64,000 nucleotides of DNA, taken from positions 1,488,001 to 1,552,000 of the forward strand of contig NZ_CP108394.1 of NCBI RefSeq assembly GCF_041435215.1, written 5' to 3'. The notes beneath the pieces were generated by a model that was not told the origin of the DNA, did not search any database, and saw nothing but the letters and a program-made list of their open reading frames with translations. The number at the start of each line of letters is the position of its first letter. Positions within the stretch are counted from its first letter, which is position 1. Origin of the DNA: Streptomyces sp. NBC_01314. Lineage in GTDB: Bacteria; Actinomycetota; Actinomycetes; Streptomycetales; Streptomycetaceae. This document shows positions 41,275-54,370 of this stretch, piece by piece. The position numbers and the translations under genes were made by a program.

Positions 41275-42579
41275 TCAGGCGAGGGTCACCTCGACCGGTA
41301 GCTTCTTGATGCCGTTGACGAAGTTGGAGCGGACGCGCGGGACGTCACCGACGAGGCGGATGTCGGCGAGGCGTGGGATCAGCTCCTCGAACATGATGCG
41401 GATCTCCGTGCGGGCCAGCAGGTTGCCCAGGCACAGGTGCGGGCTGCCCTTGCCGAAGGTGACGTGGTCGTTGTCGGCACGGGCGACGTCGAGGTCGTAG
41501 GGGTTGCCGAAGACCTCCTCGTCGCGGTTGCCGGAGGCGTACCACATGACGACCTTGTCGCCCTCCTTGACCTGCTTGCCGCCGAGTTCGACGTCACGGG
41601 TCGCGGTGCGGCGGAAGTGGTAGACGGGGGACGCCCAGCGCAGGAACTCCTCGGTCGCCGTCGGGATCAGCGACGGGTCCTCCTGGAGGCGGGCGAGCTG
41701 CTCCGGGTGCTGGAGCAGGGCCAGCATGGAGTGGGTGATGGTGTGGCGGGTGGTCTCGTTGCCGGCGACGACGAGGAGCAGGAAGTAGTTGTCGAAGTCC
41801 TGCGCGGAGAGCGGGACGCCGTCGCGCGGGGTGGTGTTGACCAGCTTGGAGACCAGGTCGGTGCCGTCGCCGCCGCGTCGCTGCCGGGCCAGTTCGCGGC
41901 CGTACTCGAAGACTTCGAGGGAGGCGGGTGAGCGGAACGGCAGGTGCCGGTACTGCTCGCTCTCCGCGCTGTTCAGCAGGACGTCGGCATAGTCGGGGTC
42001 GGTGTTGCCGATGATGCGGTTGCCCCAGTCGATGAGCCGCTGGTTGTCCTCCGGCGGGACATCGAGGAGCCGGGCGAGGACGTTGATGGGGAAGTCGGCG
42101 GAGACGTCGGCGACGAAGTCGAAGGTGCCCTTGGCGAGGGCCGCGTCGAGGGTGGTGGCGGTGAGGCCGCGCAGGAAGTCGGTGTAGCTGTTGATGACAC
42201 TCGCGCCGAACTGGCGCTGGATCACGCTGCGCAGCGCGCGGTGGCGGACGCCGTCCAGCTCCAGGATGGAGGCGCGGGTCTTGATCTGATCGTCGTCCAC
42301 CTCTTCGAGGTTGACGAACCTCGTCGAGGTGAAGGTCTCGGCGTCGCGGTCGACGCGGGCGATGTCGGCGTGCCGGGTGACCGCCCAGAAGCCGGAGTTG
42401 GGGGCCTCCTCCGGCTGCCAGTGCACCGGGTCCTCGTGGCGCAGGGTGTGGAACATGCGCCACGGGGTGACGCCGTCGGTGAAGTTGTCGAGGTCGGCGA
42501 GGTCCACGTCGTCCAGCGGCATGGGCTCCTGGACGGCTTCGCGCACGAGGGCGGGGGGGAGGTGGGCGGAAGTGGTCAT
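41275..42579 (-). CDS. Cytochrome P450
   Basis: This 434-residue soluble bacterial P450 has the I-helix oxygen motif AGNETTRHT, the ExxR motif in EFLRWASPVYHFRR, and the haem loop FGKGSPHLCLGN with Cys383 as ligand. The start ATG at 42579 is preferred. A GTG at 42603 overlaps the upstream gene stop but has no ribosome site. It lies 20 bp after the glutamine-synthetase-like gene and faces away from ferredoxin and reductase genes that probably supply its electrons. P450 next to a GS-like gene and a 3Fe-4S ferredoxin recalls the mycobacterial morpholine/piperidine monooxygenase clusters. The substrate is unknown. Confidence 0.9.
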   Translation of the reverse strand: MTTSAHLPPALVREAVQEPMPLDDVDLADLDNFTDGVTPWRMFHTLRHEDPVHWQPEEAPNSGFWAVTRHADIARVDRDAETFTSTRFVNLEEVDDDQIKTRASILELDGVRHRALRSVIQRQFGASVINSYTDFLRGLTATTLDAALAKGTFDFVADVSADFPINVLARLLDVPPEDNQRLIDWGNRIIGNTDPDYADVLLNSAESEQYRHLPFRSPASLEVFEYGRELARQRRGGDGTDLVSKLVNTTPRDGVPLSAQDFDNYFLLLVVAGNETTRHTITHSMLALLQHPEQLARLQEDPSLIPTATEEFLRWASPVYHFRRTATRDVELGGKQVKEGDKVVMWYASGNRDEEVFGNPYDLDVARADNDHVTFGKGSPHLCLGNLLARTEIRIMFEELIPRLADIRLVGDVPRVRSNFVNGIKKLPVEVTLA

Positions 42580-42599
42580 GGCGGTGGTTCTCCCGGGCT

Positions 42600-43970
42600 T
42601 CACAGGTGGTAGGCGTACTCGGTGAACTCCCAGTCGGTGACGTGCCGTTGGAAGCGTGCGACCTCATCGCGCTTGTAGGTGAGGTACGAGGTGGTGAAGT
42701 CCTTGCCGAGGAGCTCGGTGAGGGCGGTGTCCGCCTCCAGCGCGTCGAGGGCGGCGGGCAGGCTCATCGGCAGCACGGCCGCTCGGGCGGTGTCGTAGCC
42801 GTAGCCCTCCAGCGGGGCGGGGGGCTCCGCGCCGGCCCGGACGCCGAGCAGCGCGGCGGCGAGCGTGCCCGCGATCAGCAGATACGGGTTGGCTCCGGCG
42901 TCGCCGAGCCGCAGTTCCAGACGGGCGCCGGAGCCGCGCTCGGGCGGGATGCGGACCATGGCGCTGCGGTTGTCCAGGCCCCAGTCGATCAGCCAGGGCG
43001 CGAGGGTGTCCGGGCCGAACCGCTTGTAGGAGTTGACCGTCGGGTTGGCGAGGGCGGCGAGGGCCGGGGCGTGGGCGAGGACGCCGGCGATGGCGTGGCG
43101 GGCGGTGTCGGACAGCCCGTACCGGCCCGCCGGGTCGTCGAAGGTGTTGTGTCCCCGCTCGTCGTCGCAGGACAGGTGGATGTGGAAGCCGGAGCCGCCC
43201 GCGTCGTTGAAGGGCCGGGCCATGAAGGTGGCGAGGCGGCCCTCCTTGCGCGCGAGTTCCTTGACGGCGGCCTTGAAGCGGAAGGAGCGGTCGGCGGCCG
43301 AGAGGGCCTCGGAATGCGTCAGGTTGATCTCGAACTGGCCGCCGTCGAACTCGTGGTTGCCGTTGGTGACGCCGATGCGCAGGTCGCGGAGCCGGCGCAG
43401 GGTGCGCAACAGGTGGTTGTCGGGGTCGGCGCGCAGGCCGGCGGTGTAGACGGCGCCGGCGGCGCCCGAGTAGCGCTTCCAGCCGCTGGGGGACGCGGGG
43501 TCCTCGTCGCAGAGGAAGTACTCGAGTTCGGGTCCGACGACCGGGCGCAGGCCCTGCTCGGCGCAGCGGGCGAGCACCGAGCGCAGCAGGTCGCGGGGGG
43601 ACTCGGGGGCAGGTGCCCCGGTGGCCGGGTCGATGGTCTCGCCGAGACAGGTGGCGACTCCGGGCTCCCAGGGCAGGGCGAGCAGGGTGTCGAGGTCCGG
43701 GCGCACATGGATGTCGGGCAGGCCGGCGTCGAGGCCTCCGGGCACGGGGACGACGTTGCCCTGGGGTGAGGTGTGGTAGACCGCCCGGCAGAAGGCGAGT
43801 CCGTGCTCGCAGGCCGTCGGCAGCTGGTCGAGCAGTACATCGCGGGCCCGGTCGGTGCCGATGAGGTCGGGGTAGGTCACCCGGACCACGTCGATGCCCT
43901 CTGCGGCCAGTCGCTCCTGGTAGTGCCCGACGGCGTAGTGCCCGACGGGCGGCGTTTCGGATGCGCTCAC
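42600..43970 (-). CDS. Glutamine-synthetase-like gamma-glutamyl ligase
   Basis: This 456-residue protein has the glutamine synthetase fold. Beta-grasp residues come first (EGIDVVRVTYPDLIGTDRARD); the catalytic domain holds VGPELEYFL, NHEFDGGQFEIN, GSGFHIHLS, and the glutamate/ATP segment VRIPPERGSGARLELRLGDAGANPYL. It is not a typical GlnA: it lacks a recognisable adenylylation site and sits in a catabolic cluster. Such proteins usually join glutamate to an amine (PuuA, GlnA3/4, anilide or isopropylamide ligases). The GTG at 43970 follows GAGGAG. An operator copy overlaps its promoter. Confidence 0.85.
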   Translation of the reverse strand: MSASETPPVGHYAVGHYQERLAAEGIDVVRVTYPDLIGTDRARDVLLDQLPTACEHGLAFCRAVYHTSPQGNVVPVPGGLDAGLPDIHVRPDLDTLLALPWEPGVATCLGETIDPATGAPAPESPRDLLRSVLARCAEQGLRPVVGPELEYFLCDEDPASPSGWKRYSGAAGAVYTAGLRADPDNHLLRTLRRLRDLRIGVTNGNHEFDGGQFEINLTHSEALSAADRSFRFKAAVKELARKEGRLATFMARPFNDAGGSGFHIHLSCDDERGHNTFDDPAGRYGLSDTARHAIAGVLAHAPALAALANPTVNSYKRFGPDTLAPWLIDWGLDNRSAMVRIPPERGSGARLELRLGDAGANPYLLIAGTLAAALLGVRAGAEPPAPLEGYGYDTARAAVLPMSLPAALDALEADTALTELLGKDFTTSYLTYKRDEVARFQRHVTDWEFTEYAYHL

Positions 43971-43998
43971 CGTTGTCTCCTCGACGACTGGGGCCAAT

Positions 43999-44014
43999 TA
44001 TTTGATTCCAAACG
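43999..44014. promoter_or_regulatory. Cluster operator, copy 1 (before GS-like gene)
   Basis: TATTTGATTCCAAACG lies 29 bp before the GS-like start and overlaps the -10 box. Two further copies are at 44106 and 50572; together they read YRTTTGRDKCYAAACG. Confidence 0.6.
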
Positions 44015-44040
44015 ATAAGAACGACTCCATCGGCCCGCAA
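44012..44040 (-). promoter_or_regulatory. Putative promoter of the GS-P450 operon
   Basis: On the minus strand TTGCGG (44040-44035) and TATCGT (44017-44012) are 17 bp apart. Confidence 0.5.
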
Positions 44041-44077
44041 GGGGCCGGCCACAAAAAATTATCCACCTGGACAGGTA

Positions 44078-44106
44078 TTGACCAGGAGTGGACGACTTTC
44101 TATGTT
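44078..44106 (+). promoter_or_regulatory. Putative promoter of the ferredoxin operon
   Basis: TTGACC (44078-44083) and TATGTT (44101-44106) are 17 bp apart. Operator copy 2 covers the expected transcription start. Confidence 0.6.
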
Positions 44107-44121
44107 GTTTGAAGCCAAACG
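44106..44121. promoter_or_regulatory. Cluster operator, copy 2 (before ferredoxin gene)
   Basis: TGTTTGAAGCCAAACG lies directly between the -10 box and the ribosome site GGAGG of the ferredoxin gene. Confidence 0.6.
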
Positions 44122-44135
44122 AGCTGGAGGTCCCC

Positions 44136-44324
44136 ATGAAGGTCGTCGTCGACATGAACAAGTGCCAGGACCACGGACAGTGCGTGTTCGCCGCCCCGGA
44201 CGTCTTCCAGCTCGACGGGAACGGGCGCCTGGCCTACGTCAGCGACCCCGACGACGCGCTGCTCGACGAGGTCGAGGAAGCCGCCGACGTCTGTCCGCTC
44301 CAGGCCATCCGGATCGAGGCCTGA
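44136..44324 (+). CDS. 3Fe-4S ferredoxin
   Basis: This 62-residue ferredoxin has CysxxHisxxCys at 10-16 and Cys53-Pro, giving three cysteine ligands and so a 3Fe-4S cluster, as in Streptomyces P450 redox partners and MorB of morpholine degraders. The strong GGAGG site five bases before the ATG at 44136 decides the start; an upstream ATG at 44088 would overlap the promoter. It precedes the reductase gene by 4 bp and most likely serves the P450 at 41275-42579. Confidence 0.93.
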   Translation: MKVVVDMNKCQDHGQCVFAAPDVFQLDGNGRLAYVSDPDDALLDEVEEAADVCPLQAIRIEA

Positions 44325-44328
44325 GCAG

Positions 44329-45537
44329 ATGAGCACACGCGTTGTCGTCGCCGGCGCCTCCATGGCGGGTCTGCGGGCCGCCGAGCAGCTGCGGGCGGCG
44401 GGCTGGACCGGGGCCGTCACCGTCGTCGGCGACGAGCCGCACATGCCCTACAACCGGCCCCCGCTCTCCAAGGAGGTGCTGGCAGGCAAGGCGCCCTTCG
44501 AGTCTCTGGCCTTCCGTCCCCGCGCGAGCGTGGCCGACGTGGAGTGGCGGCTCGGCACGCGGGTCGCCGCCGCGCGCCTCGACGAGCGGACCGTCGAGCT
44601 GGACGACGGCTCGACACTGTCGTACGACGGTCTGGTCGTCGCCACCGGTATGCGGCCGCGTCGGCTCGGCTGCTCCGGTCCGCTCGCCGGCCGCCACACG
44701 GTCCGTACGGTGGCCGACGCGCAGGGCCTGCGGGACGAGCTGACCCGGCCCGGTGCCCGGGTGGTCGTGATCGGCGCCGGGTTCATCGGCTGCGAGGTCG
44801 CCGCCACGGCCGTGGGCCTCGGGGTCGCCGAGGTGACCGTGGTCGATCCGCTGCCGCTGCCCATGGTCGGTCCGCTCGGTGAGCTGCTCGGTCGCACGCT
44901 GCTGCGCCGGCACGAGGAGCGCGGGGTGCGGTTCGCGCTCGGCACGGGCGTCGCCGGGTTCGAGGGCGAGGAGCGGGTCACGGGTGTGGTGCTCGGCGAC
45001 GGGACCGTACTGCCCGCCGACGTGGTGGTGGAGTCGGTGGGCTCGGTCGCCAACGTCGAGTGGCTGGAGGGCAACGGCCTCGACCTGTCCGACGGAGTGC
45101 TCACCTGCGAGCAGCTGCGGGTCGGCGGGCGGCCCGAGGTGGTCGCCGTCGGCGATGTCGCCCGTTTCCCCAACGCCCGCTACGACGGCGTACCCCGCCG
45201 GGTCGAGCACTGGTCGATTCCCACGGACACCGCCAAGCACGCGGCGAAGGTGCTGGTCGGCCATCTCACCGGCGCGGAGGCGCAGTCGGCTGCCTTCGGA
45301 CCGCTGCCCACCTTCTGGAGCGACCAGCACGACTTCCGGCTCCAGTCCTTCGGCGCGCCGGTCCTCGGCCGGGACGACGTACGGGTCCTGGACGGCGACC
45401 CGGCCGCGGACGTCCTGGTCGGCTACCACCACGACGGCCGGCTGGTCGGCGTCGTCGCGCTCGGCGGCCCCGCCACCGTGTCCGCCGCCGCCCGCTACCG
45501 CGCCGAGCTGCTCAAGCAGCCCGCCCTCACCGCGTAA
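44329..45537 (+). CDS. FAD-dependent ferredoxin reductase
   Basis: This 402-residue flavoprotein has an FAD site VVVAGASMAGLRAAEQLR (Ser in place of the usual second Gly), the segment MPYNRPPLSKEVLAGK, an NAD site VVVIGAGFIGCEVAATAVG, and EVVAVGDVARFPN. It is the usual putidaredoxin-reductase type that passes electrons from NAD(P)H to a ferredoxin. With the adjacent 3Fe-4S ferredoxin it would form the electron chain for the nearby P450. It is followed after 14 bp by the decarboxylase-like gene. Confidence 0.92.
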   Translation: MSTRVVVAGASMAGLRAAEQLRAAGWTGAVTVVGDEPHMPYNRPPLSKEVLAGKAPFESLAFRPRASVADVEWRLGTRVAAARLDERTVELDDGSTLSYDGLVVATGMRPRRLGCSGPLAGRHTVRTVADAQGLRDELTRPGARVVVIGAGFIGCEVAATAVGLGVAEVTVVDPLPLPMVGPLGELLGRTLLRRHEERGVRFALGTGVAGFEGEERVTGVVLGDGTVLPADVVVESVGSVANVEWLEGNGLDLSDGVLTCEQLRVGGRPEVVAVGDVARFPNARYDGVPRRVEHWSIPTDTAKHAAKVLVGHLTGAEAQSAAFGPLPTFWSDQHDFRLQSFGAPVLGRDDVRVLDGDPAADVLVGYHHDGRLVGVVALGGPATVSAAARYRAELLKQPALTA

Positions 45538-45551
45538 GGACCCTCCTGACC

Positions 45552-46364
45552 ATGACCAGTGTCCGTGGATACTTCCACCCCAAGACGGCGAGCGGCGGCT
45601 CGTCGCTCATCCCCTCCCCGCCCTGGCGCTACTCGGGCGACCTGCTCACCGTCGAGTACCGCACGGACCCCGCGCGGGTGCGTGAACTGCTGCCGGAGCC
45701 ACTGGAGTTGGCCGACGAGGACCCCGGCGCGGTCGCGCTGATCTGGGCCGACTGGCAGTCCTGCTCGGCGTCGGGGGCGGAACTGCTCGACCCCGTGCTC
45801 TCCCAGTACAAGGAGGCCTTCGCGGTCGTCCGCTGCGCGTACAGGGGGCGGACGTACTCGCGGTGCGTCTACATCTGGGTCGACAAGGACTTCGCGATCG
45901 CCCGCGGGCTGCACCAGGGATATCCGAAGAAGCTCGGGTCCATCCACCAGGCGCGGCCCCATCCGCTGGGGCCCGCGCCGCGGATCGAGGCGGGGGCGCG
46001 ATTCGGGGCGACGCTGGCGGCGGCGGACCGGCGGCTCGCGCAGACCGTGGTGACGCTGCGGGAGCCGGCCGAGACGAACGGGTTCGTGAACGCGCATCCC
46101 ATGGCTCATCACCGGTGGCTGCCGTCCATCGAGAAGGGGAAGGGATTGGCCCTCGATGAGCTGATCGAGACCGGGGCGGCTTCCTTCGAGGGGGGTCGGC
46201 CGTGGGTGGGTGAGGCCGAGTTGGAGCTGTTCGAGGCGCCGACCGAGGAGTTGGCCCGCCTGGAGATCCGTGAGCCGATCGCCGCGTACTACCGGCAGGT
46301 GGGGGTCGTCTGGGACGGCGGACGGTTGTTGGAGTCCGGGCTGTCGGGCGCGAGCGCCGAGTAG
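45552..46364 (+). CDS. Acetoacetate-decarboxylase-family protein
   Basis: This 270-residue protein has the acetoacetate decarboxylase fold. The Schiff-base motif is retained in GYPKKLGS, with Lys126 and Lys127 matching Lys115 and Lys116 of the clostridial enzyme. It is therefore likely to be an active decarboxylase, aldolase or dehydratase that works through an imine. The natural substrate is unknown; its place between redox partners and HpaE/D/G-like genes suggests a keto acid of the ring-cleavage pathway or an early aldehyde step. The gap to the next gene contains a copy of an intergenic repeat. Confidence 0.85.
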   Translation: MTSVRGYFHPKTASGGSSLIPSPPWRYSGDLLTVEYRTDPARVRELLPEPLELADEDPGAVALIWADWQSCSASGAELLDPVLSQYKEAFAVVRCAYRGRTYSRCVYIWVDKDFAIARGLHQGYPKKLGSIHQARPHPLGPAPRIEAGARFGATLAAADRRLAQTVVTLREPAETNGFVNAHPMAHHRWLPSIEKGKGLALDELIETGAASFEGGRPWVGEAELELFEAPTEELARLEIREPIAAYYRQVGVVWDGGRLLESGLSGASAE

Positions 46365-46395
46365 GCCCGTCGTCGAACGCGGGTGGTCGGGGGCT

Positions 46396-46444
46396 GGTCG
46401 CGCCCACGCGGCGGAGCCGCATATCCACCCAGCCCCGCGCACCC
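46396..46444. repeat. Intergenic repeat, copy 2
   Basis: It begins GGTCGCGCCCACGCGGCGGA, continues GCCGCATATCCACCC and ends CCGCGCACCC, closely matching 4683-4733. The hairpin here is GCGGC-gga-GCCGC. Confidence 0.6.
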
Positions 46445-46487: not shown

Positions 46488-47948
46488 ATGTCTGACAAAA
46501 TCGTCGTCGCCGGCGTCTCCGTCGACACCCGGCACTGGATCGGCGGACAGCGGGTCGCCTCCGCCGAGACCTTCACCGACGTCTCCCCCGTCGACGGTCG
46601 TGTCCTCGGCGAGATCGCTCGTGGCGGTCCCGGCGAGGTCGACGCCGCTGTCGCCGCCGCCCGTGAGGCCTTTCCCGGCTGGGCCGCCACCCCCCGCACC
46701 GAACGCGCCCGGGTCCTGCACGCCATCGCCGACGGGGTCGAGAAGCGGCTCGAAGAGCTGGCCGTCGTCGAGACGAACGACAACGGGGCGCTGCTGCGGT
46801 CGCACCGGCGGGGTGTGATGCCGCGGGTGGCGCACAACTTCCGGTTCTTCGCCGACCGGCTGCTGACGCTGGAACACGAGGACTTCGAGACGCGCGGGCA
46901 CACCAACCGGGTGAGCTGGGACCCGGCTGGGCCGTCCGTGCTGATCACGCCGTGGAACGCGCCGCTGATGCTGGCCACCTGGAAGGTCGCCCCGGCCCTC
47001 GCCGCCGGCAACACGGTGATCCTCAAGCCCGCCGAGTGGACCCCGCTGACCGCGTCGCTGCTGGCGGACATCGCCGCCGAGGCGGGGCTGCCCGCCGGGG
47101 TGCTCAATGTCGTCCAGGGGTACGGCTCTGAGATCGGTGACGCGCTCACCTCGCACCCGGACGTGCGCCGGATCAGCTTCACGGGATCGGTGCCGACGGC
47201 CAGGCGGATCGCCGGGTCGGCGGCGCCCAACCTCACCCCGCTGAGCCTCGAACTCGGCGGCAAGTCACCGCTGTTGGTGTTCGCGGACGCCGATCTGGAC
47301 CTGGCCGTGGACCTCGCGGTGGAGCAGTACGACAACGCCGGGCAGGTGTGCCTGGCCGCGACACGGTTCCTCGTGGAGGAGTCGGTGGCGGAGGAGTTCA
47401 CCCGGCGGTTCGTGGAGAAGGCGTCGGCGCTGAAGCAGGGTGACCCGCGCGACGAGGCCACCGACATCGGGCCCACCATCCATCCCCGGCAGCTGGAGAA
47501 GATCGACGGGTTCGTGCGGCGGGCCGTGGCCGACGGGGCCCGTGCGGTCATCGGTGGGCACCGCGAGGGCGAGCAGTACTACGCGCCCACCCTGCTCACC
47601 GATGTCGCCCAGGACTCGGAGATCGTGCAGGAGGAGGTCTTCGGGCCGGTCCTGACGCTCCAGACCTTCGCCGACGAGGACGAGGCGGTCCGGCTCGCCA
47701 ACGACACCCGTTTCGGACTGGCCGCCACCCTCGCCACCGGTGACACCGAGCGCGCCTCGCGGGTGACCGAGCGGCTGGTGGCGGGCACGGTGTGGGTGAA
47801 CTGCTTCTTCGTCCGTGATCTGCGGGCTCCTTTCGGCGGCTCCCGTCACTCCGGGGTCGGCCGGGAGGGCGGCACCTGGAGCTTCGACTTCTACTGCGAC
47901 GTGAAGAACACCGTGACCGCGCCGAACGGATGGAACAACCATGGGTGA
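46488..47948 (+). CDS. HpaE-like semialdehyde dehydrogenase
   Basis: This 486-residue aldehyde dehydrogenase has the substrate/cofactor motif LELGGKSPLLVFADADLD and the catalytic Cys in NAGQVCLAATRFLV. The C-terminal ending SGVGREGGTWSFDFYCDVKNT is typical of 5-carboxymethyl-2-hydroxymuconate semialdehyde dehydrogenases (HpaE). It would oxidise the ring-cleavage semialdehyde formed by the HpaD-like enzyme encoded next. The two genes overlap by 8 bp. Confidence 0.85.
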   Translation: MSDKIVVAGVSVDTRHWIGGQRVASAETFTDVSPVDGRVLGEIARGGPGEVDAAVAAAREAFPGWAATPRTERARVLHAIADGVEKRLEELAVVETNDNGALLRSHRRGVMPRVAHNFRFFADRLLTLEHEDFETRGHTNRVSWDPAGPSVLITPWNAPLMLATWKVAPALAAGNTVILKPAEWTPLTASLLADIAAEAGLPAGVLNVVQGYGSEIGDALTSHPDVRRISFTGSVPTARRIAGSAAPNLTPLSLELGGKSPLLVFADADLDLAVDLAVEQYDNAGQVCLAATRFLVEESVAEEFTRRFVEKASALKQGDPRDEATDIGPTIHPRQLEKIDGFVRRAVADGARAVIGGHREGEQYYAPTLLTDVAQDSEIVQEEVFGPVLTLQTFADEDEAVRLANDTRFGLAATLATGDTERASRVTERLVAGTVWVNCFFVRDLRAPFGGSRHSGVGREGGTWSFDFYCDVKNTVTAPNGWNNHG

Positions 47949-48855
47949 GATCGTCGGGGCGGGGCTCCTCGCCCATGTCCCCACCATCGTCCTGCCGGAG
48001 GCCGACCGGCTGGAGCTGAACGGGGGCAAGGAGATCACCCTCGTCACCGGCCTCCAGGAGCTGCGCCGGGACGTCTTCGACCGCGATGCCGCCAACGACT
48101 ACGACACCGTCGTCGTCCTCGACTCGCACTGGGCGACCACCGTCGAGTTCGTCGTCGCCGCACAGCAGCGCCGGGCCGGTCTCTTCACCTCCGAGGAGCT
48201 GCCGCGCGGGATGTGCCGGATGCCGTACGACTTCCCCGGTGATCCCGAACTCGCCCTGAACATCGAGAGGTTCGCGGACAAGCACGGCACCTGGATCACC
48301 GCGATCGAGGACGAGTACCTGCCGATCTACTACGCCACGATCAACCTGTGGAAGTTCCTCGGCGAGGGTCTGCCCGACAAGCGGTGGGTGAGCATCGGGG
48401 TCTGTCAGACCGGCGACATGGAGGACCATCTGCGGCTGGGGCGGGCGCTCGCCGACGGGATCGCCGCCACCCCAGGGCGACGGGTCCTCGTCATCGCCTC
48501 GGGCGCGCTGTCGCACACCTTCTGGCCGCTGCGCGAGCTGCGTGACCACGAGGCCGGCGACCCGGCGCACATCTTCACGCCCGAGGCGCGCGCGGCCGAC
48601 CAAGAACGGATCGCCTGGTTCAAGGAGGGCCGGCACGACAAGGTCCTCGACACCATGGACGAGTTCTGGAAGCACAAGCCCGAGGCGAAGTTCTTCCACT
48701 ACCTGATGCTGGCCGGCGCCCTGGGCGAACAGGACTGCGTCGCCAAGGGCCGCCAGTACGGCGAGTACGAGAACTCCATCGGCACCGGTCAGGTGCACCT
48801 GTGGTTCGACCGCCCGGCCGCCGGCTGGACCGGCACTCCGCACCGACTCCCCTAG
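47941..48855 (+). CDS. LigB-type extradiol dioxygenase, HpaD-like
   Basis: This 304-residue protein resembles E. coli-type 3,4-dihydroxyphenylacetate 2,3-dioxygenase of the LigB superfamily. Shared points are the start LLAHVPTIVLPE, VVVLDSHWATTVEF with a metal histidine, GLFTSEELP, VLVIASGALSHTFW, and the ending SIGTGQVHLWF. It uses iron to open a catechol ring next to the hydroxyl groups. HpaE- and HpaG-like genes on either side support a homoprotocatechuate-like substrate, but a different catechol is possible. Confidence 0.85.
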   Translation: MGEIVGAGLLAHVPTIVLPEADRLELNGGKEITLVTGLQELRRDVFDRDAANDYDTVVVLDSHWATTVEFVVAAQQRRAGLFTSEELPRGMCRMPYDFPGDPELALNIERFADKHGTWITAIEDEYLPIYYATINLWKFLGEGLPDKRWVSIGVCQTGDMEDHLRLGRALADGIAATPGRRVLVIASGALSHTFWPLRELRDHEAGDPAHIFTPEARAADQERIAWFKEGRHDKVLDTMDEFWKHKPEAKFFHYLMLAGALGEQDCVAKGRQYGEYENSIGTGQVHLWFDRPAAGWTGTPHRLP

Positions 48856-48866
48856 GAAGGCCCGCC

Positions 48867-49712
48867 ATGCCCGAGTACCGCCGCATCCTCCTCGACGGAG
48901 CCACCGTCCAGGTCACCGTCGACGGCGACGAACTGGTCGCCGGGGACGGCCGCCGCGTCAAGACCGAGGAGGCCCGGCACCTCCCGCCGGTCGTGCCGTC
49001 GAAGGTGATCGCCGTCCACCTCAACCACCGCAGCCGCGTGGACGAGTTCCGGATCGGACTCCCGGACACGCCCACCTACTTCCACAAGCCGACCTCCTCC
49101 CTCAACAGCCACAAGGGCGCCGTCGTCCGCCCCGACGGCTGCAAGTGGCTCAACTACGAGGGCGAGGTCGCCATCGTCATCGGCAGGACCGCGCGGAACA
49201 TCGCGCCGCAGGACGCGGGCGAGTACATCGCCGGGTACACCGTCGCCAACGACTACGGTCTGCACGACTTCCGTGACACCGACGCCGGTTCGATGCTGCG
49301 GGTGAAGGGTTCCGACACCCTCTGCCCGCTCGGTCCCGGGCTCGTCACCGACTGGGACTTCCACGGAAAGCGGCTGCGGACGTACGTCAACGGCGAGGTC
49401 GTCCAGGACGGTTCGACGGACGAGATGAAGTGGGACATGCACTATCTCGTCGCCGACATCGCCCGCACCATCACGCTGTACCCGGGGGACGTCCTGCTCT
49501 CCGGCACCCCGGCCAACTCCCGGCCCGTACAGCCCGGCGACGTCGTCGAGGTGGAGGTGGAGGGCCTCGGCCGGCTCACCAACCACATCGTCACCGGCCC
49601 CACCCCGGTCCGCACCGACGTCGGCGCACAGCCCACCGAGTCCGAGGAGGTCCTCTCCACGGCGCTCGGCGGCGACTGGGAGTTCCGTGGCGTCCGCCCG
49701 CCCCGGCGGTGA
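48867..49712 (+). CDS. FAH-family hydrolase/decarboxylase, HpaG-like
   Basis: This 281-residue protein belongs to the fumarylacetoacetate hydrolase family. It has FHKPTSSLNSHKGAVV, the metal-site glutamates in LNYEGEVAIVIG, AGYTVANDYGLHDF, LRVKGSDTLCPLGPGLV and LLSGTPANS. These features fit HpaG-type enzymes that isomerise and decarboxylate the oxidised ring-cleavage product. The N-terminal 40 residues are extra compared with minimal family members. The gene is 11 bp after the dioxygenase gene and 59 bp before the TetR gene. Confidence 0.85.
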   Translation: MPEYRRILLDGATVQVTVDGDELVAGDGRRVKTEEARHLPPVVPSKVIAVHLNHRSRVDEFRIGLPDTPTYFHKPTSSLNSHKGAVVRPDGCKWLNYEGEVAIVIGRTARNIAPQDAGEYIAGYTVANDYGLHDFRDTDAGSMLRVKGSDTLCPLGPGLVTDWDFHGKRLRTYVNGEVVQDGSTDEMKWDMHYLVADIARTITLYPGDVLLSGTPANSRPVQPGDVVEVEVEGLGRLTNHIVTGPTPVRTDVGAQPTESEEVLSTALGGDWEFRGVRPPRR

Positions 49713-49771
49713 CGTCCGGGCGCGGTCACGGGCAGGTGGCGGGCGGGAGGCAGGCGGGTAGGGTCACGCGC

Positions 49772-50431
49772 ATGACCGATTCCGCCGACGCCGCCGACGC
49801 CCCGAAGAGTCGACGGCCACGCAGGCGCCTCAACTACGGCGAGGGACGCGAGGCTCTGCTGAACGCCGCCGTGCACGTGGTGGCGCGGGGCGGGTTGCGC
49901 AGGCTCACCTACCGGGCCGTCGCGGAGGAGGCGGGGGTCACCCACGGGCTCGTCGTGCACCACTTCGGGTCGCGTGACGCCCTGATCGAGGAGGCCCTCG
50001 CCCACACCATCCGCACCTCGCTCAACACCAGCTCCCTCGAACCGGGCACCGGCAAGGTCGCGGACTTCTCCACCGGGCTGTCCGAGATGGTCACGGCCGA
50101 CCCGGACACCCAGGCCTTCCAGTACGAGCTGCTGCTCGAATCCCGGCGCCGGCCGGAGCTGCTGCCGCAGATCCGCGAGCTGTACGACGAGTACTTCGAC
50201 GCCGCCCGGCGCGAGCTGGGCCGGATGCTGCCGGCCGGCGCGGACAAGGCGCTGACCCGGCTGGTCTTCGCCGCGCTCGACGGTCTGGTCCTGCATCAGC
50301 TCGTCCTCGGCGAGCCCGACGTCACGGACGCCGCTCTGGAGGAGCTGCGCTCCCTGTTGCGGCTGCTCGACGCCAACGGCGGCGCCCACCGAACCCGTGC
50401 CGCCGACGAAGCCGGCGACGCCCACGCATAG
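49772..50431 (+). CDS. TetR-family regulator of the amine/aromatic cluster
   Basis: This 219-residue regulator has a TetR helix-turn-helix near residues 30-75 (LTYRAVAEEAGVTHGLVVHHFGSRDALIEEALAH) and an all-helical ligand domain. The first 20 residues are basic. It is the only regulator in the cluster and is followed by a strong terminator. Three copies of a 16-bp dyad lie at the promoters for the GS-P450, ferredoxin and permease operons, which makes it the most likely binding protein. The ligand would be the pathway substrate or an intermediate; this is inferred. Confidence 0.85.
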   Translation: MTDSADAADAPKSRRPRRRLNYGEGREALLNAAVHVVARGGLRRLTYRAVAEEAGVTHGLVVHHFGSRDALIEEALAHTIRTSLNTSSLEPGTGKVADFSTGLSEMVTADPDTQAFQYELLLESRRRPELLPQIRELYDEYFDAARRELGRMLPAGADKALTRLVFAALDGLVLHQLVLGEPDVTDAALEELRSLLRLLDANGGAHRTRAADEAGDAHA

Positions 50432-50452
50432 CCGCTGACCTCAGCGGTTCCG

Positions 50453-50481
50453 GCCCCGGACGTGCGGCGTCCGGGGCTTTT
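50453..50481 (+). terminator. Terminator after the TetR gene
   Basis: GCCCCGGACG pairs with CGTCCGGGGC around TGCGG and is followed by TTTT, an intrinsic terminator. Confidence 0.9.
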
Positions 50482-50571
50482 CGGCGTCCCGGCGCGGGAC
50501 CGGAAAACCCGGCGGAAATCTTCACGGGACCCCTTGCCAAACGGATAGTTCGGGCTCACGATGAGGCAACT

Positions 50572-50587
50572 CGTTTGGGTCTAAACG
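50572..50587. promoter_or_regulatory. Cluster operator, copy 3 (before permease gene)
   Basis: CGTTTGGGTCTAAACG has perfect 5-bp arms and matches copies 1 and 2. It lies 36 bp before the chosen permease start. Confidence 0.65.
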
Positions 50588-50622
50588 AATCCATCCCTCC
50601 CCGTCCCCGACAGGTGATCCGA

Positions 50623-52080
50623 GTGGACAGTCAGACGGCGGTCGCCCCGCACAGCTCGCAGGATCCATCCACGGCAGGCAGGCTCAAGCCCGATTCCCTG
50701 GGCGTCCTGGGCATCCTGTTCTTCGTCCTTTCCGCCCAGGCCCCGCTGACCGGCATAGCCGGAGCCGTGCCCATCGCCGTCGTCATCGGCAACGGGGCCG
50801 GTGTCCCCGCCGCGTATCTCGCCGCCGGCGTCGTGATCCTGCTGTTCTCCATCGGCTTCGTCGCCATGGGCCGCCACGTCGTGGACGCCGGCGCCTTCTA
50901 CACGTACATCGGCAAGGGCCTGGGCCGCTCGACCGGGTCCGGCAGCGCCGGCGTCGCGCTCTTCGCCTACTGCGCCATCCAGGCCGCGATGTACGGGCTC
51001 TACGGCGCGACGGTGAGCGGCCTCGTCGAGCACTACGCCGACGTGACGATCGCCTGGTGGGTGTGGGCGCTGGTCACCATGGTGGTGGTCCAGGTCCTCG
51101 GCGCCGCCGGGATCGAGATGGGCGCCAAGCTCCTGGCCGTGTTCGTCCTGGCGGAGTTCAGCATCCTGATCGCCTTCGCCTTCGTGACCTTCTTCAAGGG
51201 CGGCGGCCCCGAAGGGCTCGGCCTCGCCGACAGCTTCTCGCCGGACGCGGCGCTCCAGGGCGCTCCCGGTGTGGCGCTGATGTTCGCCGTGGCATCGATG
51301 TTCGGCTTCGAGGCGACCGCCATCTACGGCGAGGAGGCCCGGGAGCCGAAGAAGACGGTGCCGCGCGCCACCTATCTGTCGGTCGCGGTCGTCACCGGCT
51401 TCTTCGCCTTCACCTCGTGGATGCTGGTCTCCGCGCACGGCGCGGCACAGGCGATGGCGGAGGCGGGCAAGGCGCTGGAGAGCGGTGACGCCGCGGGCTG
51501 GGTCTTCGCCCCCATCGCGGCGGAGTTCGGCGCGTGGACCGGCGACGTGCTGCCCGTCCTGCTGGCCACCTCGCTGTTCGCGGGCATCCTGGCGTTCCAC
51601 AACTCCGCCAACCGCTACCTGTTCTCCCTGGGCCGTGAGGGTCTGCTGCCGCGCGGGCTGACCTCGCTCAACCGGCGCCACTCCCCCTGGGCGGCCGGCC
51701 TCGTCCAGACCGTGATCGCGGCGGCCCTGGTCATCCCGTTCGCGCTCCTGGGCAAGGACCCCGTGCTGACGCTCTTCTCCTGGTTCAGCGGTGTGGCAGT
51801 CCTGGCGATGATGCTCCTGTACTTCCTGACCTCCGTCTCCGTGGTCGTCTTCTTCCGCCGCACCCGTGCCGACACCCGGCCGTGGAACACGCTGATCGCA
51901 CCGGTCCTGGGCGCGCTCGGCATCGCCTGGGCGATCTGGCTGATCATCGAGAACTTCACCACGCTCATCGGCGGCGACCGGGCCACCGCCGTGTGGCTGC
52001 AACTGACCGTCCCCGCGGTGCTGGTGCTGGGTCTCGTCGTGGCACGGGTGACCCGGGACCGCCGGACAATCGCGGACTGA
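50623..52080 (+). CDS. APC-family amino acid/amine permease
   Basis: This 485-residue protein has about twelve hydrophobic helices. The APC start is LGILFFVLSAQAPLTGIAGA, helix 1; helix 6 region is FGFEATAIYGEEAREPKKTV, a consensus of the superfamily. It would import an amino acid or amine by cation symport, consistent with the glutamyl-ligase and hydrolase genes nearby. The GTG at 50623 is preferred, with AGGTGA upstream; a TTG at 50575 lies inside the operator. The gene heads the permease-dehydrogenase-hydrolase operon. Confidence 0.85.
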   Translation: MDSQTAVAPHSSQDPSTAGRLKPDSLGVLGILFFVLSAQAPLTGIAGAVPIAVVIGNGAGVPAAYLAAGVVILLFSIGFVAMGRHVVDAGAFYTYIGKGLGRSTGSGSAGVALFAYCAIQAAMYGLYGATVSGLVEHYADVTIAWWVWALVTMVVVQVLGAAGIEMGAKLLAVFVLAEFSILIAFAFVTFFKGGGPEGLGLADSFSPDAALQGAPGVALMFAVASMFGFEATAIYGEEAREPKKTVPRATYLSVAVVTGFFAFTSWMLVSAHGAAQAMAEAGKALESGDAAGWVFAPIAAEFGAWTGDVLPVLLATSLFAGILAFHNSANRYLFSLGREGLLPRGLTSLNRRHSPWAAGLVQTVIAAALVIPFALLGKDPVLTLFSWFSGVAVLAMMLLYFLTSVSVVVFFRRTRADTRPWNTLIAPVLGALGIAWAIWLIIENFTTLIGGDRATAVWLQLTVPAVLVLGLVVARVTRDRRTIAD

Positions 52081-52130
52081 CCGCCACGCACCTTCACCGG
52101 TTCGAACCCTCACAAAGAGCCCCCGCCCGA

Positions 52131-52158
52131 AGAACCCCGCACAAAGAACCCCGCACAA
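52131..52158. repeat. 14-bp tandem repeat
   Basis: AGAACCCCGCACAA occurs twice in direct succession in the 98-bp gap between the permease and dehydrogenase genes. Confidence 0.65.
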
Positions 52159-52178
52159 AGACAGGAAGAGGAGAGCTG

Positions 52179-53672
52179 ATGCCCGCCGCCCTCGCCCACG
52201 ACGACCTGCTCCGTCGCGCCAAGGAACTGGATCTGCCCGACCAGCACCACATCGACGGGGTGGACGAGCCGGGCGGGGGCGCCTCCTTCGCCGTCGTGTC
52301 ACCCCGTGACGGTCAGGTCCTCGTCGAGGTCGCCGACGCGCGGAGCGCCGAGGTCGACCTGGCCGTGGCCGCCGCCCGCCGCGCCTTCGACTCGGGCCCC
52401 TGGCCCCGCCTGGCACCCGCCGACCGAGGCCGGATCCTGCTCCGCGTCGCCGAACTCCTGGAGGAGCGGCGGGAGGAGCTCGCCCTGACCATCACCCTGG
52501 AGATGGGCAAGCCGTTCAGGGAAGCGCACGACATCGAGCTGCGCGCCGCGATCAACACCTTCCGCTGGTACGGGCAGCTGGCCGACAAACTCACCGACGA
52601 GTCGCCCCACACCTCCCCCGACGCCCTGGCCCTGGTCACCCGCGAACCGACGGGTGTCGTGGGCGCGGTGGTGCCGTGGAACTTCCCCCTGACACTGGCG
52701 AGCTGGAAGGTGGCCCCGGCGCTGGCCGCCGGCTGCACGGTCGTCCTGAAGCCCTCGGAGAACTCCCCGCTGTCCGCCCTGCTGCTGGGCCGGATCGCCA
52801 CCGAGGCCGGACTGCCGCCGGGCGTCCTCAACGTCGTCACCGGGGACGGGCCGACGGCCGGGCGGGCGATCGGACTGCACCCCGATGTGGACGTGCTGGC
52901 CTTCACCGGCTCCACGGCCGTGGGCCGGCACTTCCTGCGCTACGCCGCCGACTCCAACCTCAAGCGGGTCTGGCTGGAGCTGGGCGGCAAGTCGCCGAAC
53001 ATCATCCTCCCCGACGCCCCCGACCTGGAAAAGGCCGCCGCCACCGCCGCCTGGGGCATCTTCTTCAACCAGGGCGAGATGTGCACCGCCCCGTCCCGGC
53101 TCCTGGTGCACTCCTCCGTCGCCGAACGCGTCACCGAGGCGATCGTGGCCCGCGCCCGGGAACTGCGCGTCGGCGACCCGCTGGACCCGGCCACCGAGAT
53201 GGGCGCGCTGGTCCGCGGGGCCCATCTGGAGCGCGTCCTCGGCCACATCGGCACGGGTGTCGCCGAAGGCGCGCGACTGCGAGCGGGCGGCGAGCGCACC
53301 CTGACGGACACCGGCGGCAGCTATCTGCGGCCCACCGTCTTCGACCGGGTGGACCCCGGCATGCGGCTGGCCCGCGAGGAGATCTTCGGCCCCGTCCTGT
53401 CCGTCCTCACCTTCGACGACCTCGACGAGGCCGTACGGCTGGCCAACGACACCGAGTACGGTCTCGCCGCCGGCCTGTGGACCTCCGACCTGTCCACCGC
53501 CCACCAGGTCTCCCGCGCGCTCAGGGCCGGCACGGTCTGGGTCAACTGCTACGAGGAGGGGGATCTGACCGTGCCCTTCGGCGGGATGAGGCAGTCGGGC
53601 AACGGCCGCGACAAGTCCGCCCACGCCATCGAGAAGTACACCGAGCTGAAGACCACGTGGATCCAGCTGTGA
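52179..53672 (+). CDS. Aldehyde dehydrogenase, PuuC-like
   Basis: This 497-residue NAD(P) aldehyde dehydrogenase resembles gamma-glutamyl-aminoaldehyde (PuuC) and related amine-derived aldehyde dehydrogenases. It has GAVVPWNFPLTLASWKVAPA, the glutamate in WLELGGKSPNIIL, the catalytic Cys in NQGEMCTAPSRLLV and the ending NGRDKSAHAIEKYTELKTTW, which is typical of PuuC. It would oxidise an aldehyde to an acid before the glutamyl group is removed by the next gene product. A GTGA overlap joins the two. The ribosome site is GGAAGAGGAG. Confidence 0.88.
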   Translation: MPAALAHDDLLRRAKELDLPDQHHIDGVDEPGGGASFAVVSPRDGQVLVEVADARSAEVDLAVAAARRAFDSGPWPRLAPADRGRILLRVAELLEERREELALTITLEMGKPFREAHDIELRAAINTFRWYGQLADKLTDESPHTSPDALALVTREPTGVVGAVVPWNFPLTLASWKVAPALAAGCTVVLKPSENSPLSALLLGRIATEAGLPPGVLNVVTGDGPTAGRAIGLHPDVDVLAFTGSTAVGRHFLRYAADSNLKRVWLELGGKSPNIILPDAPDLEKAAATAAWGIFFNQGEMCTAPSRLLVHSSVAERVTEAIVARARELRVGDPLDPATEMGALVRGAHLERVLGHIGTGVAEGARLRAGGERTLTDTGGSYLRPTVFDRVDPGMRLAREEIFGPVLSVLTFDDLDEAVRLANDTEYGLAAGLWTSDLSTAHQVSRALRAGTVWVNCYEEGDLTVPFGGMRQSGNGRDKSAHAIEKYTELKTTWIQL

Positions 53673-54370
53673 CCCGGCCCCTGATAGCGGTACCCGCCCG
53701 CTTCTCCGCCACGACCTCCGCACTGCGGTACGCCGCCGAGGTCAACGCCCGCGCCCTGATCGAGGCCGTCTGGCGGGCGGGCGGCGAACCCGCGAGCATC
53801 CACCCCGCCGCCGGCGACGTGGCCGCCCGCCTCGCCCGCTTCGACGGCGTCCTCCTCCCGGGCGGCGGTGACCTCGCCCCGTACCGCTACGGCGCCACGG
53901 ACACCCACGACAGCGTGTACGACGTCGACGAGGTACAGGACGCCTTCGACCTCGAAGCCGCCCGCGCCGCCCTGCACTCGGGCATCCCCCTGCTGGCGGT
54001 CTGCCGGGGCCTGCAGGTCGTCAACGTCGCCCTCGGCGGCACCCTGGAACAGGACATGGGCGGCCCGGAGCGCGAACACCGCCACCTCGCGCACCCGGTG
54101 GCGCTCCGGCGCGGAACCGTGCTGGAGCGGGCCACCGGCGCGCAGAAGGTGGAGGCGTCCTGCTACCACCACCAGCGGGTGGACCGGCTGGGCGAGGGTC
54201 TGGAGGTCACCGCCCGCGCCGCCGACGGCACCGCGGAAGGACTCGAACTCCGGGGCGCCCCCGGCTGGTTCGCCGCCGTCCAGTGGCACCCCGAGGACAC
54301 CGCCCACGAGGACACCGCGCAACAGGCCCTCTTCGACGCCCTCGTACGGGCCGCCGGGGACCGACGCTGA
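53669..54370 (+). CDS. Class I glutamine amidotransferase-like hydrolase, PuuD-like
   Basis: This 233-residue protein resembles gamma-glutamyl-gamma-aminobutyrate hydrolase (PuuD, peptidase C26 group). The nucleophile is Cys112 in LLAVCRGLQVVN, and His207 with Glu209 in QWHPED complete the triad. The N-terminal region has LLPGGGDLAPYRYG, the usual oxyanion/substrate loop of the family. It should split a gamma-glutamyl amide formed by the GS-like ligase. A GTG start overlaps the dehydrogenase stop. It ends at a bidirectional hairpin before cobN. Confidence 0.9.
   Translation: MTRPLIAVPARFSATTSALRYAAEVNARALIEAVWRAGGEPASIHPAAGDVAARLARFDGVLLPGGGDLAPYRYGATDTHDSVYDVDEVQDAFDLEAARAALHSGIPLLAVCRGLQVVNVALGGTLEQDMGGPEREHRHLAHPVALRRGTVLERATGAQKVEASCYHHQRVDRLGEGLEVTARAADGTAEGLELRGAPGWFAAVQWHPEDTAHEDTAQQALFDALVRAAGDRR

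What the first reader, a model, noticed from the sequence alone, without database searches (positions are those of the whole stretch)
41275..54370. Possible glutamate-tagging pathway joined to a P450 and a catechol ring-cleavage pathway
A GS-like ligase, P450, 3Fe-4S ferredoxin and reductase sit with HpaE-, HpaD- and HpaG-like genes, a TetR regulator, an APC permease, a PuuC-like dehydrogenase and a PuuD-like hydrolase. Known pieces are the Puu route (ligase, aldehyde dehydrogenase, hydrolase), the aniline route (GS-like plus amidotransferase-like), the morpholine/piperidine cluster (P450, 3Fe-4S ferredoxin, reductase, GS-like), and the homoprotocatechuate meta pathway. I do not know a described system that combines all of these. 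The inference is catabolism of an amine, perhaps an arylethylamine such as a tyramine- or dopamine-like compound. HpaB, HpaH, HpaI and an amine oxidase are not seen.
Basis: partly seen in the sequence, partly recalled or inferred. Interest (0 to 1): 0.75.

Follow-up and report, generated by a model that had tools for sequence, protein, structure and literature searches.

The report
Glutamate-tagged aromatic amine breakdown cluster
A set of twelve genes that stays together and shares its own DNA switch in many Streptomyces probably lets them eat tyramine- or dopamine-like amines by tagging them with glutamate and then cutting the aromatic ring, by a route for which I found no published description.

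Summary
One was missed: an ADC-like gene (MppR/Sbi_00515 type) at 45552-46364. The block is one system. GS, P450, reductase, ADC-, HpaE-, HpaD- and HpaG-like genes occur together in 66 of 70 usable loci. GS and HpaD-like genes are each in 30 of 394 class genomes, both in 27. An 18-bp palindrome marks both halves (43998, 44105, 50571). With at most one mismatch it occurs four times in the 11.3 Mb genome, and in 41 of 199 genomes of the genus, 40 of them among the 42 with the GS. A MarR is at least as good a candidate reader as the TetR. PLP decarboxylases of four lineages, two nearest to aromatic ones, sit in 16 of 40 relatives' loci. My reading: an arylethylamine (tyramine, dopamine) is gamma-glutamylated, hydroxylated and ring-cleaved with the tag on. 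The ADC-like enzyme replaces HpaH and HpaI, releasing pyruvate plus gamma-glutamyl-aminobutyraldehyde, the PuuC substrate; PuuC/PuuD give GABA and glutamate. This would explain why PuuB, an amine oxidase, HpaH and HpaI are missing. Unity is well supported; substrate and chemistry are inferred.

The parts
41275..42579 (-). cytochrome P450, inferred to hydroxylate the ring of the tagged amine
   Evidence: PF00067; nearest solved chains 8vxi/8vxg CYP125MRCA, then CYP124/125; present in 66 of 70 loci
42600..43970 (-). GS-like gamma-glutamyl-amine ligase (alternative start TTG 43997)
   Evidence: PF00120; metal, Glu and ATP residues kept, Tyr179->Val and Glu327->Leu in E. coli GlnA numbering (roles of residues recalled)
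43998..44015 (.). operator-like palindrome 1, on the GS side of the divergent promoter
44105..44122 (.). operator-like palindrome 2, on the ferredoxin side of the divergent promoter
44136..44324 (+). small [3Fe-4S]-type ferredoxin
   Evidence: PF13370/PF13459; three-Cys pattern read in the sequence; start by Shine-Dalgarno
44329..45537 (+). FAD-dependent ferredoxin reductase
   Evidence: NCBIfam HcaD/AndAa-type hits, below cut-off
45552..46364 (+).
   Evidence: PF06314, TIGR04460 MppR 170 bits, cut-off 380, PDB 4jm3, 4zbo, 5upb with the Lys region PKK kept
46488..47948 (+). HpaE-like semialdehyde dehydrogenase
   Evidence: TIGR02299 537 bits, cut-off 638; 43% to E. coli HpaE
47941..48855 (+). 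HpaD-like LigB extradiol dioxygenase
   Evidence: PF02900, TIGR02298 121 bits, cut-off 316; His12 and His63 in all 34 sequences aligned, Glu248 in 33 (metal-ligand role recalled)
48867..49712 (+). HpaG-like FAH-fold decarboxylase/isomerase, single domain
   Evidence: PF01557, TIGR02303 213 bits, cut-off 276
49772..50431 (+). TetR-family regulator
   Evidence: PF00440/PF17940; in 66 of 70 loci
50571..50588 (.). operator-like palindrome 3, upstream of the permease-PuuC-PuuD genes
   Evidence: a site upstream of APC in 64 of 66 loci
50623..52080 (+). APC-family amine/amino acid permease (start inferred)
   Evidence: NCBIfam APC-type models, below cut-off
52179..53672 (+). PuuC-like aldehyde dehydrogenase
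   Evidence: 51% to E. coli PuuC; best NCBIfam model PuuC, below cut-off
53669..54370 (+). PuuD-like gamma-glutamyl hydrolase (Peptidase C26)
   Evidence: PF07722; 28% to E. coli PuuD; best NCBIfam model gamma-glutamyl-GABA hydrolase, below cut-off

Best explanation
A single co-regulated pathway for an arylethylamine (tyramine, dopamine or a close relative) in which the glutamyl tag stays on during ring cleavage. (1) The APC permease takes the amine up; in some relatives it is also made by a clustered amino-acid decarboxylase. (2) The GS-like enzyme makes the gamma-glutamyl amide. (3) P450, ferredoxin and reductase add the second ring hydroxyl, giving gamma-glutamyl-dopamine. (4) The HpaD-like enzyme opens the ring, the HpaE-like enzyme oxidises the semialdehyde, the HpaG-like enzyme decarboxylates. 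(5) The ADC-like enzyme hydrates and splits the chain into pyruvate plus OHC-CH2-R; with R = CH2CH2-NH-gamma-Glu this is gamma-glutamyl-gamma-aminobutyraldehyde. (6) The PuuC-like enzyme oxidises it to gamma-glutamyl-GABA and the PuuD-like enzyme releases GABA and glutamate. Shown: gene content, conservation, co-occurrence, shared palindrome, GS pocket changes. Inferred: every reaction and the substrate.
For: Core in 66 of 70 loci. GS and HpaD-like each in 30 of 394 genomes, both in 27; GS in 42 and PuuD-like in 40 of 199, both in 36. One palindrome before both halves, in 40 of 42 GS-bearing and 1 of 157 other genomes of the genus. The GS keeps metal, Glu and ATP residues but has Val and Leu for Tyr179 and Glu327 of the ammonia pocket; PuuA also has Val there, and NpaA1 has Val201 where AtdA1 has Tyr205 (PMC11335346, passages). 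Group II PLP decarboxylases of four lineages (at most 36% identical between lineages) lie in 16 of the 40 loci and on the S. lunaelactis plasmid; two lineages are nearest to aromatic amino-acid decarboxylase structures. The window's genome has a relative (65%) of one of them, in two copies far away. No HpaH-like and no HpaI-like match (E<=0.001) in 8 of 16 cluster-bearing genomes, all 8 with the ADC gene in the cluster; a Sphingobium operon without GS has hpaH and hpcH instead. Carbon mapping of the textbook homoprotocatechuate pathway (recalled) gives the PuuC substrate, which accounts for a PuuC/PuuD tail without PuuB. Basic residues conserved in canonical HpaD (Lys9, Arg29, Arg42, His65, His116 of the E. 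coli protein) are replaced in the cluster family.
Against: No enzyme was assayed. No decarboxylase is in the window's cluster or in any of the 80 loci. For three of the four decarboxylase lineages (L176, L165, L187) the best NCBIfam model is a diaminobutyrate or aspartate decarboxylase, far below cut-off. AtdA1 glutamylates aniline with Tyr at the pocket position, so Val there is not decisive. The P450 is nearest to CYP125-type alkyl/steroid hydroxylases. PuuD-like proteins are below cut-off, absent in G389 and G529, and only distant and unlinked in G055, G096, G149, G164, G426, G468 and G484. L048 has GS, APC, PuuC and PuuD without ring-cleavage genes in 21 kb; L172 has P450, GS and ADC without HpaD in 17 kb. 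L015, L017, L055 and G157 (L203, L219) have GS and ring-cleavage genes but neither P450 nor decarboxylase in the fetched stretches. Novosphingobium has no PuuD-like gene nearby. The aldolase-dehydratase activity of Sbi_00515-type proteins is recalled, not read; other aldolase types were not searched in the 16 genomes.
Confidence: 0.5

Rival explanations
1. Tag removed before ring cleavage: the amine is glutamylated, oxidised by the P450 next to the nitrogen, and released as an arylacetaldehyde; the PuuC-like enzyme makes homoprotocatechuate, which the Hpa-like enzymes cleave. PuuD then only controls glutamyl-amide or glutamine levels, as AtdA2 does in the aniline route.
For: HpaE/D/G similarity; in the aniline and 1-naphthylamine routes the tag is lost on oxygenation and the GAT-like enzyme hydrolyses the amide back (PMC11335346, passages); a second amidotransferase-like gene lies in 17 of the 40 loci.
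Against: The HpaD-like family lacks basic positions conserved in canonical HpaD and scores 121 against a cut-off of 316 bits. PuuC-like and PuuD-like proteins scoring best against the gamma-glutamyl-GABA branch would be unexplained. GS and HpaD-like genes stay together in clusters without P450, such as L015, L017, L055, L192-L194 and L215.
Confidence: 0.2
2. Same logic but another side chain or ring: a benzylamine-, aniline- or aminophenol-type amine, giving a shorter tagged aldehyde.
For: GS pocket is compatible with other aromatic amines; no decarboxylase in any of the 80 loci.
Against: Decarboxylases in 16 of 40 other loci, two lineages nearest to aromatic amino-acid decarboxylases, and a PuuC/PuuD-type tail point to a two-carbon side chain.
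Confidence: 0.15
3. The P450 does not hydroxylate the ring but demethylates or oxidises an alkyl group, the natural substrate being a methylated or methoxylated phenethylamine.
For: CYP125-type P450; several relatives have a second P450 with ferredoxin, an LLM oxidoreductase, VanA/VanB-like proteins, PurU, FolD or a GcvT-like gene; L169 has the VanA-like gene and no P450 in its stretch.
Against: The small-genome clusters L176, L182, L183 and L196 keep the P450 without LLM, PurU or Rieske genes in the fetched stretch.
Confidence: 0.13
4. Two neighbouring but unrelated operons (a Puu-type amine operon and an aromatic-acid operon).
For: Each half resembles a known pathway; L048 has only the Puu-like half.
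Against: Conservation, co-occurrence and the shared palindrome; cluster found as a unit on a mobilizable plasmid and, as a diverged core without PuuD, in another phylum.
Confidence: 0.02

Closest known systems
Puu (gamma-glutamyl putrescine) pathway, E. coli
   Same: GS-like ligase (32%), PuuC-like dehydrogenase (51%), PuuD-like hydrolase (28%), permease
   Different: no PuuB oxidase or PuuE in the block; the aldehyde is inferred to come from a retro-aldol split of a cleaved ring; P450 and ring-cleavage genes added
Homoprotocatechuate (Hpa/Hpc) meta pathway
   Same: HpaE-, HpaD- and HpaG-like steps
   Different: no HpaF, HpaH, HpaI or HpaB in the block; ADC-like gene instead; all three proteins below the family cut-offs; distinct HpaD-like subfamily
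Aniline / 1-naphthylamine glutamylation (AtdA, TdnQ, NpaA)
   Same: glutamylate an aromatic amine, oxygenate it, then ring cleavage; amidotransferase-like partner
   Different: Rieske dioxygenase there, P450 here; tag lost before ring cleavage there, inferred kept here
Morpholine/piperidine clusters of mycobacteria (recalled, not compared)
   Same: P450, [3Fe-4S] ferredoxin, reductase, GS-like gene
   Different: no ring-cleavage genes recalled there; P450 here is CYP125-like
ADC-like aldolase-dehydratases (MppR, Sbi_00515, Swit_4259)
   Same: fold family and Lys region
   Different: here in a ring-cleavage operon as inferred HpaH+HpaI substitute

Membership tests
Puu pathway | gamma-glutamyl-putrescine ligase PuuA (NF045547) | tested here: not met
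   264 bits, cut-off 650; 32% to E. coli PuuA
Puu pathway | FAD oxidase PuuB in the operon | tested here: not met
   no such gene among the ORFs of the block
Puu pathway | PuuC and PuuD equivalogs | tested here: not met
   best-scoring models, but 563 of 850 and 67 of 266 bits
Homoprotocatechuate meta pathway | HpaD (TIGR02298) and HpaE (TIGR02299) at curated cut-off | tested here: not met
   121 of 316 and 537 of 638 bits
Homoprotocatechuate meta pathway | HpaH hydratase and HpaI aldolase | tested here: not met
   none in the block; no genome over cut-off in 16 tested; no match of either at E<=0.001 in 8 of 16; sub-threshold matches in the others, the window's genome included
Homoprotocatechuate meta pathway | cleaves free 3,4-dihydroxyphenylacetate | not testable with these tools
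   needs enzyme assay
Aniline-type glutamylation system | Rieske dioxygenase partner | tested here: not met
   P450 instead in the window block; VanA-like Rieske genes in 6 of the 40 loci
GS-like organic-amine ligases | glutamate/ATP/metal residues kept, ammonia pocket changed | tested here: met
   kept in the window GS; Val, Ile or Ala at 179 and no Glu at 327 in all 166 locus copies aligned (redundant loci included)
GS-like organic-amine ligases | acts on an aromatic amine | not testable with these tools
   needs enzyme assay
Morpholine/piperidine P450 clusters | CYP151-type P450 | not tested
   no reference sequence compared; nearest solved chains are CYP125-type
ADC-like aldolase-dehydratases | sequence relation and Schiff-base Lys region | tested here: met
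   MppR 152 bits, 4zbo/6eej 150 bits, 5upb 102 bits, 3bgt/3bh3 ADC 28 bits; PKK/PKQ aligned; lysine role and Sbi/Swit names recalled
ADC-like aldolase-dehydratases | pyruvate aldolase/dehydratase activity | not testable with these tools
   needs enzyme assay

The most novel reading that the evidence does not exclude
A previously undescribed convergent route: catecholamine- or tyramine-type amines are carried through extradiol ring cleavage as gamma-glutamyl amides, so that the aromatic ring becomes pyruvate and the tagged side chain becomes gamma-glutamyl-aminobutyraldehyde and then GABA. One ADC-like enzyme does the work of hydratase and aldolase. In Streptomyces the route has its own palindromic operator, perhaps read by a MarR regulator. 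It sits in about a fifth of the Streptomyces sampled, in 1.3-1.9 Mb actinobacteria, on a mobilizable plasmid and, diverged, in a Novosphingobium, and sometimes starts from an amino acid by a clustered decarboxylase.
Probability: 0.45. Interest if true: 0.85.

Novelty: new variant of a known kind. Interest (0 to 1): 0.74.

Why it matters
If right, it is a new way to degrade aromatic biogenic amines that joins the putrescine and homoprotocatechuate pathways at a shared intermediate. It gives a specific role to GS-like, P450, ADC-like and gamma-glutamyl hydrolase genes that carry only family names. It makes a testable regulon (an 18-bp palindrome almost confined, in the genus sample, to genomes with the cluster) and names the substrate to try. 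The same core in very small actinobacterial genomes suggests that the substrate is common in nature.

Tried and rejected
Rejected: two unrelated halves; plain Puu, Hpa or aniline membership (cut-offs not met or defining genes missing); TetR as the only possible reader of the palindrome, because the palindrome (at most 1 mismatch) is in clusters with the MarR and no TetR (L033, L048, L051, L060, L184, L187, L188, L190-L194, L201, L215). Against MarR: 64 loci with the palindrome show the TetR and no MarR within the fetched stretch. It is not settled which regulator binds.

Led nowhere: literature searches for such a pathway listed no paper that by title or abstract start describes it; searches for the ADC-like proteins (12 of 117 and 10 of 291 papers listed) showed none on them, so the aldolase-dehydratase activity is recalled. 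Residue 327 of the GS is Thr only in L192, L193, L194, L201, L215 and L221 (L221 overlaps L192), the P450-less lineage with a decarboxylase in each of the first five; suggestive, not used. The seven PF00282 matches of the own genome were compared only by script with the clustered ones where held as loci; the one GABA transaminase match over cut-off of 22 matches was not followed. No structure prediction was run. The palindrome's degenerate form was chosen after seeing window and relatives' sites; the genome and genus scans came after that choice. Of 60 shuffled control palindromes the mean counts were 1.3, 0.5 and 0.3, but the largest single ones reached 71, 31 and 14; which shuffles these were I did not look at.

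Dropped rows: one search counts used 70 of 80 loci (10 lacked flank). Of its 5 loci with room but no PuuC over threshold, L018, L025 and L062 do show a PuuC match. One search used 72 and 66 regions. One search used 24 cluster-family and 10 comparison HpaD sequences; one of the 24 (L143) is from G544, where no GS passed, and one of the 10 (Sphingobium) behaves like the cluster group. In one search matches under 250 bits were dropped: those I looked at come from an out-of-frame stretch of the L165 ORF over the HpaG-like gene. A first count of 12 of 40 loci with a decarboxylase became 16 of 40. The co-occurrence sets were typed.

Full report
OBSERVATION. The window is 64 kb of an 11.35 Mb genome (G000:C1:1488001-1552000). 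Its nearest named relatives by the GS gene are S. europaeiscabiei, S. stelliscabiei, S. scabiei and S. caniscabiei (92-95%), so I call the genus Streptomyces. Its nearest solved relatives are MppR (4jm3), 4zbo/6eej and 5upb, with 3bgt/3bh3 far behind (28 bits). From recall, 4zbo is Sbi_00515 and 5upb Swit_4259, pyruvate aldolase-dehydratases.

ONE SYSTEM. A pattern-based scan of one genome for each of 84,980 species with the GS gave 312 relatives, of which the best 80 loci were kept. Of the 70 with enough flank, P450, ferredoxin and reductase are each in 66, ADC-, HpaE-, HpaD- and HpaG-like in 69, TetR and APC in 66. The PuuC-like gene passes the threshold in 33 of 38 loci with at least 1.7 kb beyond APC. 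In a class-wide sample the GS (E<=1e-120) is in 30 of 394 genomes, the HpaD-like gene (E<=1e-60) in 30 of 394, both in 27. Within the genus the GS (E<=1e-150) is in 42 of 199 genomes, the PuuD-like gene (E<=1e-60) in 40 of 199, both in 36. Outside Streptomyces much of the same set, rearranged, is in small genomes of 1.3-1.9 Mb (family f25) and 2.0-3.3 Mb (f34); I could not name these taxa. A complete cluster sits on a mobilizable S. canus plasmid and one without P450, ferredoxin and reductase on a linear S. lunaelactis plasmid. A freshwater Novosphingobium plasmid has GS 36%, P450 41%, HpaD 54%, HpaE 53%, HpaG 76%, ADC 56% and a second ALDH together, but no PuuD-like gene nearby.

SHARED SWITCH. 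The palindrome TYGTTTGRNNYCAAACRA lies twice between the divergent GS and ferredoxin genes and once upstream of permease-PuuC-PuuD. All 72 GS/ferredoxin regions examined have at least one site (66 two) and 64 of 66 upstream-APC regions have one, with up to 2 mismatches. With at most one mismatch it occurs at four places in the whole genome: these three and G000:C1:1453040, 79 kb away. It occurs in 41 of 199 genomes of the genus, which include 40 of the 42 GS-bearing ones (not G146, G157) and 1 of 157 others (G121). The fourth site lies 55 bp behind a MarR gene and about 190 bp before a LysE-type gene; beside the MarR are an LLM oxidoreductase, an amidohydrolase and an ABC importer. Homologs of this MarR (43-60% identity) are in 21 of the 26 non-Streptomyces loci, but only 3 of those 26 have the palindrome with at most one mismatch (L164, L173, L180). 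Streptomyces clusters with the MarR and no TetR still carry the palindrome.

SUBSTRATE. (a) The GS keeps metal, glutamate and ATP residues but Tyr179 is Val and Glu327 is Leu (E. coli GlnA numbering; roles recalled). All 166 locus copies aligned have Val, Ile or Ala at 179 and none has Glu at 327 (153 Leu, the rest Thr, Met, Ile or Ala); loci are partly redundant. Val stands at the first position also in E. coli PuuA, and Val201 is a key residue of NpaA1 where AtdA1 has Tyr205 (PMC11335346, passages only). (b) Group II PLP decarboxylases lie in 16 of the 40 loci (L165, L172, L175-L177, L179, L182, L183, L187, L192-L197, L201) and on the S. lunaelactis plasmid, but in none of the 80 loci. They form four lineages at most 36% identical to each other (L172 is 52% to the L201 lineage). 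The Streptomyces/S. lunaelactis lineage is nearest to 5hsi, 6ebn and 7cwx (5hsi and 7cwx are tyrosine decarboxylases by recall). The small-genome lineage is nearest to 4obu, 5o5c and 7xin, the last a DOPA decarboxylase. By NCBIfam the best model is tyrosine decarboxylase for L193 but diaminobutyrate decarboxylase for L176 and L165 and aspartate decarboxylase for L187, all far below cut-off. The window's genome holds a 65% relative of the L165 enzyme near both chromosome ends (G000:C1:43679 and 11283143). (c) The HpaD-like family keeps the metal ligands but has lost several basic positions conserved in canonical HpaD. Together these favour an arylethylamine that is not free homoprotocatechuate at the ring-cleavage step.

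MECHANISM. From the textbook homoprotocatechuate pathway (recalled): a catechol with side chain R on C1 ends, after cleavage, oxidation, decarboxylation, hydration and retro-aldol, as pyruvate plus OHC-CH2-R. For R = CH2COOH this is succinic semialdehyde; for R = CH2CH2NH-gamma-Glu it is gamma-glutamyl-gamma-aminobutyraldehyde, the PuuC substrate. This single step explains why a PuuC/PuuD tail is attached to a ring-cleavage operon, why PuuB and an amine oxidase are missing, and, with the ADC-like enzyme as hydratase-aldolase, why HpaH and HpaI are missing. In line with that, no HpaH-like and no HpaI-like match (E<=0.001) is found in 8 of 16 cluster-bearing genomes (G389, G426, G460, G468, G484, G529, G545, G560), and none over cut-off in any; the other 8, the window's genome included, have sub-threshold matches of one or both. 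A Sphingobium operon with a 38% HpaD-like gene and no GS in the 25 kb shown has hpaH and hpcH instead.

AGAINST. PuuD-like genes are not universal: none in G389 and G529, and only distant, unlinked ones in G055, G096, G149, G164, G426, G468 and G484. Some loci have only part of the set (L048, L172, L186, L190). L015, L017, L055 and G157 (L203, L219) show neither P450 nor decarboxylase. In L169 a VanA-like Rieske gene is present and no P450. The P450 is CYP125-like. PuuD-like and PuuC-like proteins score best against the Puu models but below cut-off. All chemistry is inference.

KNOWN OR NEW. Aniline and 1-naphthylamine routes glutamylate an aromatic amine before a Rieske oxygenase, and their GAT-like enzyme hydrolyses the amide (PMC11335346, passages). 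Streptomyces gamma-glutamylation is described for polyamines and ethanolamine, and the words tyramine and dopamine do not occur in the main texts of the two papers searched (PMC9397018 and PMC5403932, passages). Catecholamines elicit siderophore production, and catechol angucycline production, in Streptomyces (PMC9814775, passages). Eight library searches listed no paper describing a pathway like this one (listings only); the library holds only open-licence papers, so this is weak evidence of absence.

VERDICT. Its unity is close to certain; arylethylamine as substrate is likely; retention of the glutamyl tag through ring cleavage is my best but unproven explanation.

Noticed in passing
G000:C1:1445600-1453900 (L236:1600-9909), outside the window: Second locus of the presumed regulon: ABC importer, amidohydrolase (Amidohydro_3), LLM oxidoreductase, MarR and LysE-type exporter next to the fourth palindrome; it may feed conjugated or methylated amines into the pathway.
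   Followed up: partly
G000:C1:43679-44674 and 11283143-11284138 (L208, L209), outside the window: PLP decarboxylase, 65% to the cluster-linked one of L165, in two copies near the chromosome ends; may supply the amine.
   Followed up: partly
L216 (S. canus plasmid NZ_CP107732.1) and L016-type loci: Enlarged clusters add a second P450 with ferredoxin and an LLM oxidoreductase; the S. canus plasmid also has FolD, PurU and a GcvT-like gene, which looks like one-carbon disposal after demethylation of methylated amines.
   Followed up: partly
L197, L175, L173 and others (17 of the 40 loci): A second class-I amidotransferase-like protein, in several loci between GS and P450, reminiscent of AtdA2/NpaA2 of the aniline route.
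   Followed up: no
L015, L017, L101 (and L055, less examined): P450-less variant: beside the GS lie a SnoaL/lumazine-binding-like protein and another ALDH instead of P450, ferredoxin and reductase; L015 and L017 also have a peptide-type ABC transporter.
   Followed up: partly
L048 (S. cavernae): GS, permease, PuuC- and PuuD-like genes without ring-cleavage genes in 21 kb, next to an N-formylglutamate amidohydrolase-family gene; palindromes still present.
   Followed up: no
L203 and L219 (G157): A 29% HpaD-like gene of the canonical type and HpaE/HpaG-like genes next to the GS, with the cluster-type ADC/HpaE/HpaD/HpaG/PuuC/PuuD set 19-25 kb away.
   Followed up: partly
window 37425-38603: FAD monooxygenase nearest to 3-hydroxybenzoate 6-monooxygenase (below cut-off); seen near the block in 2 of the 80 loci (L005, L006).
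   Followed up: no
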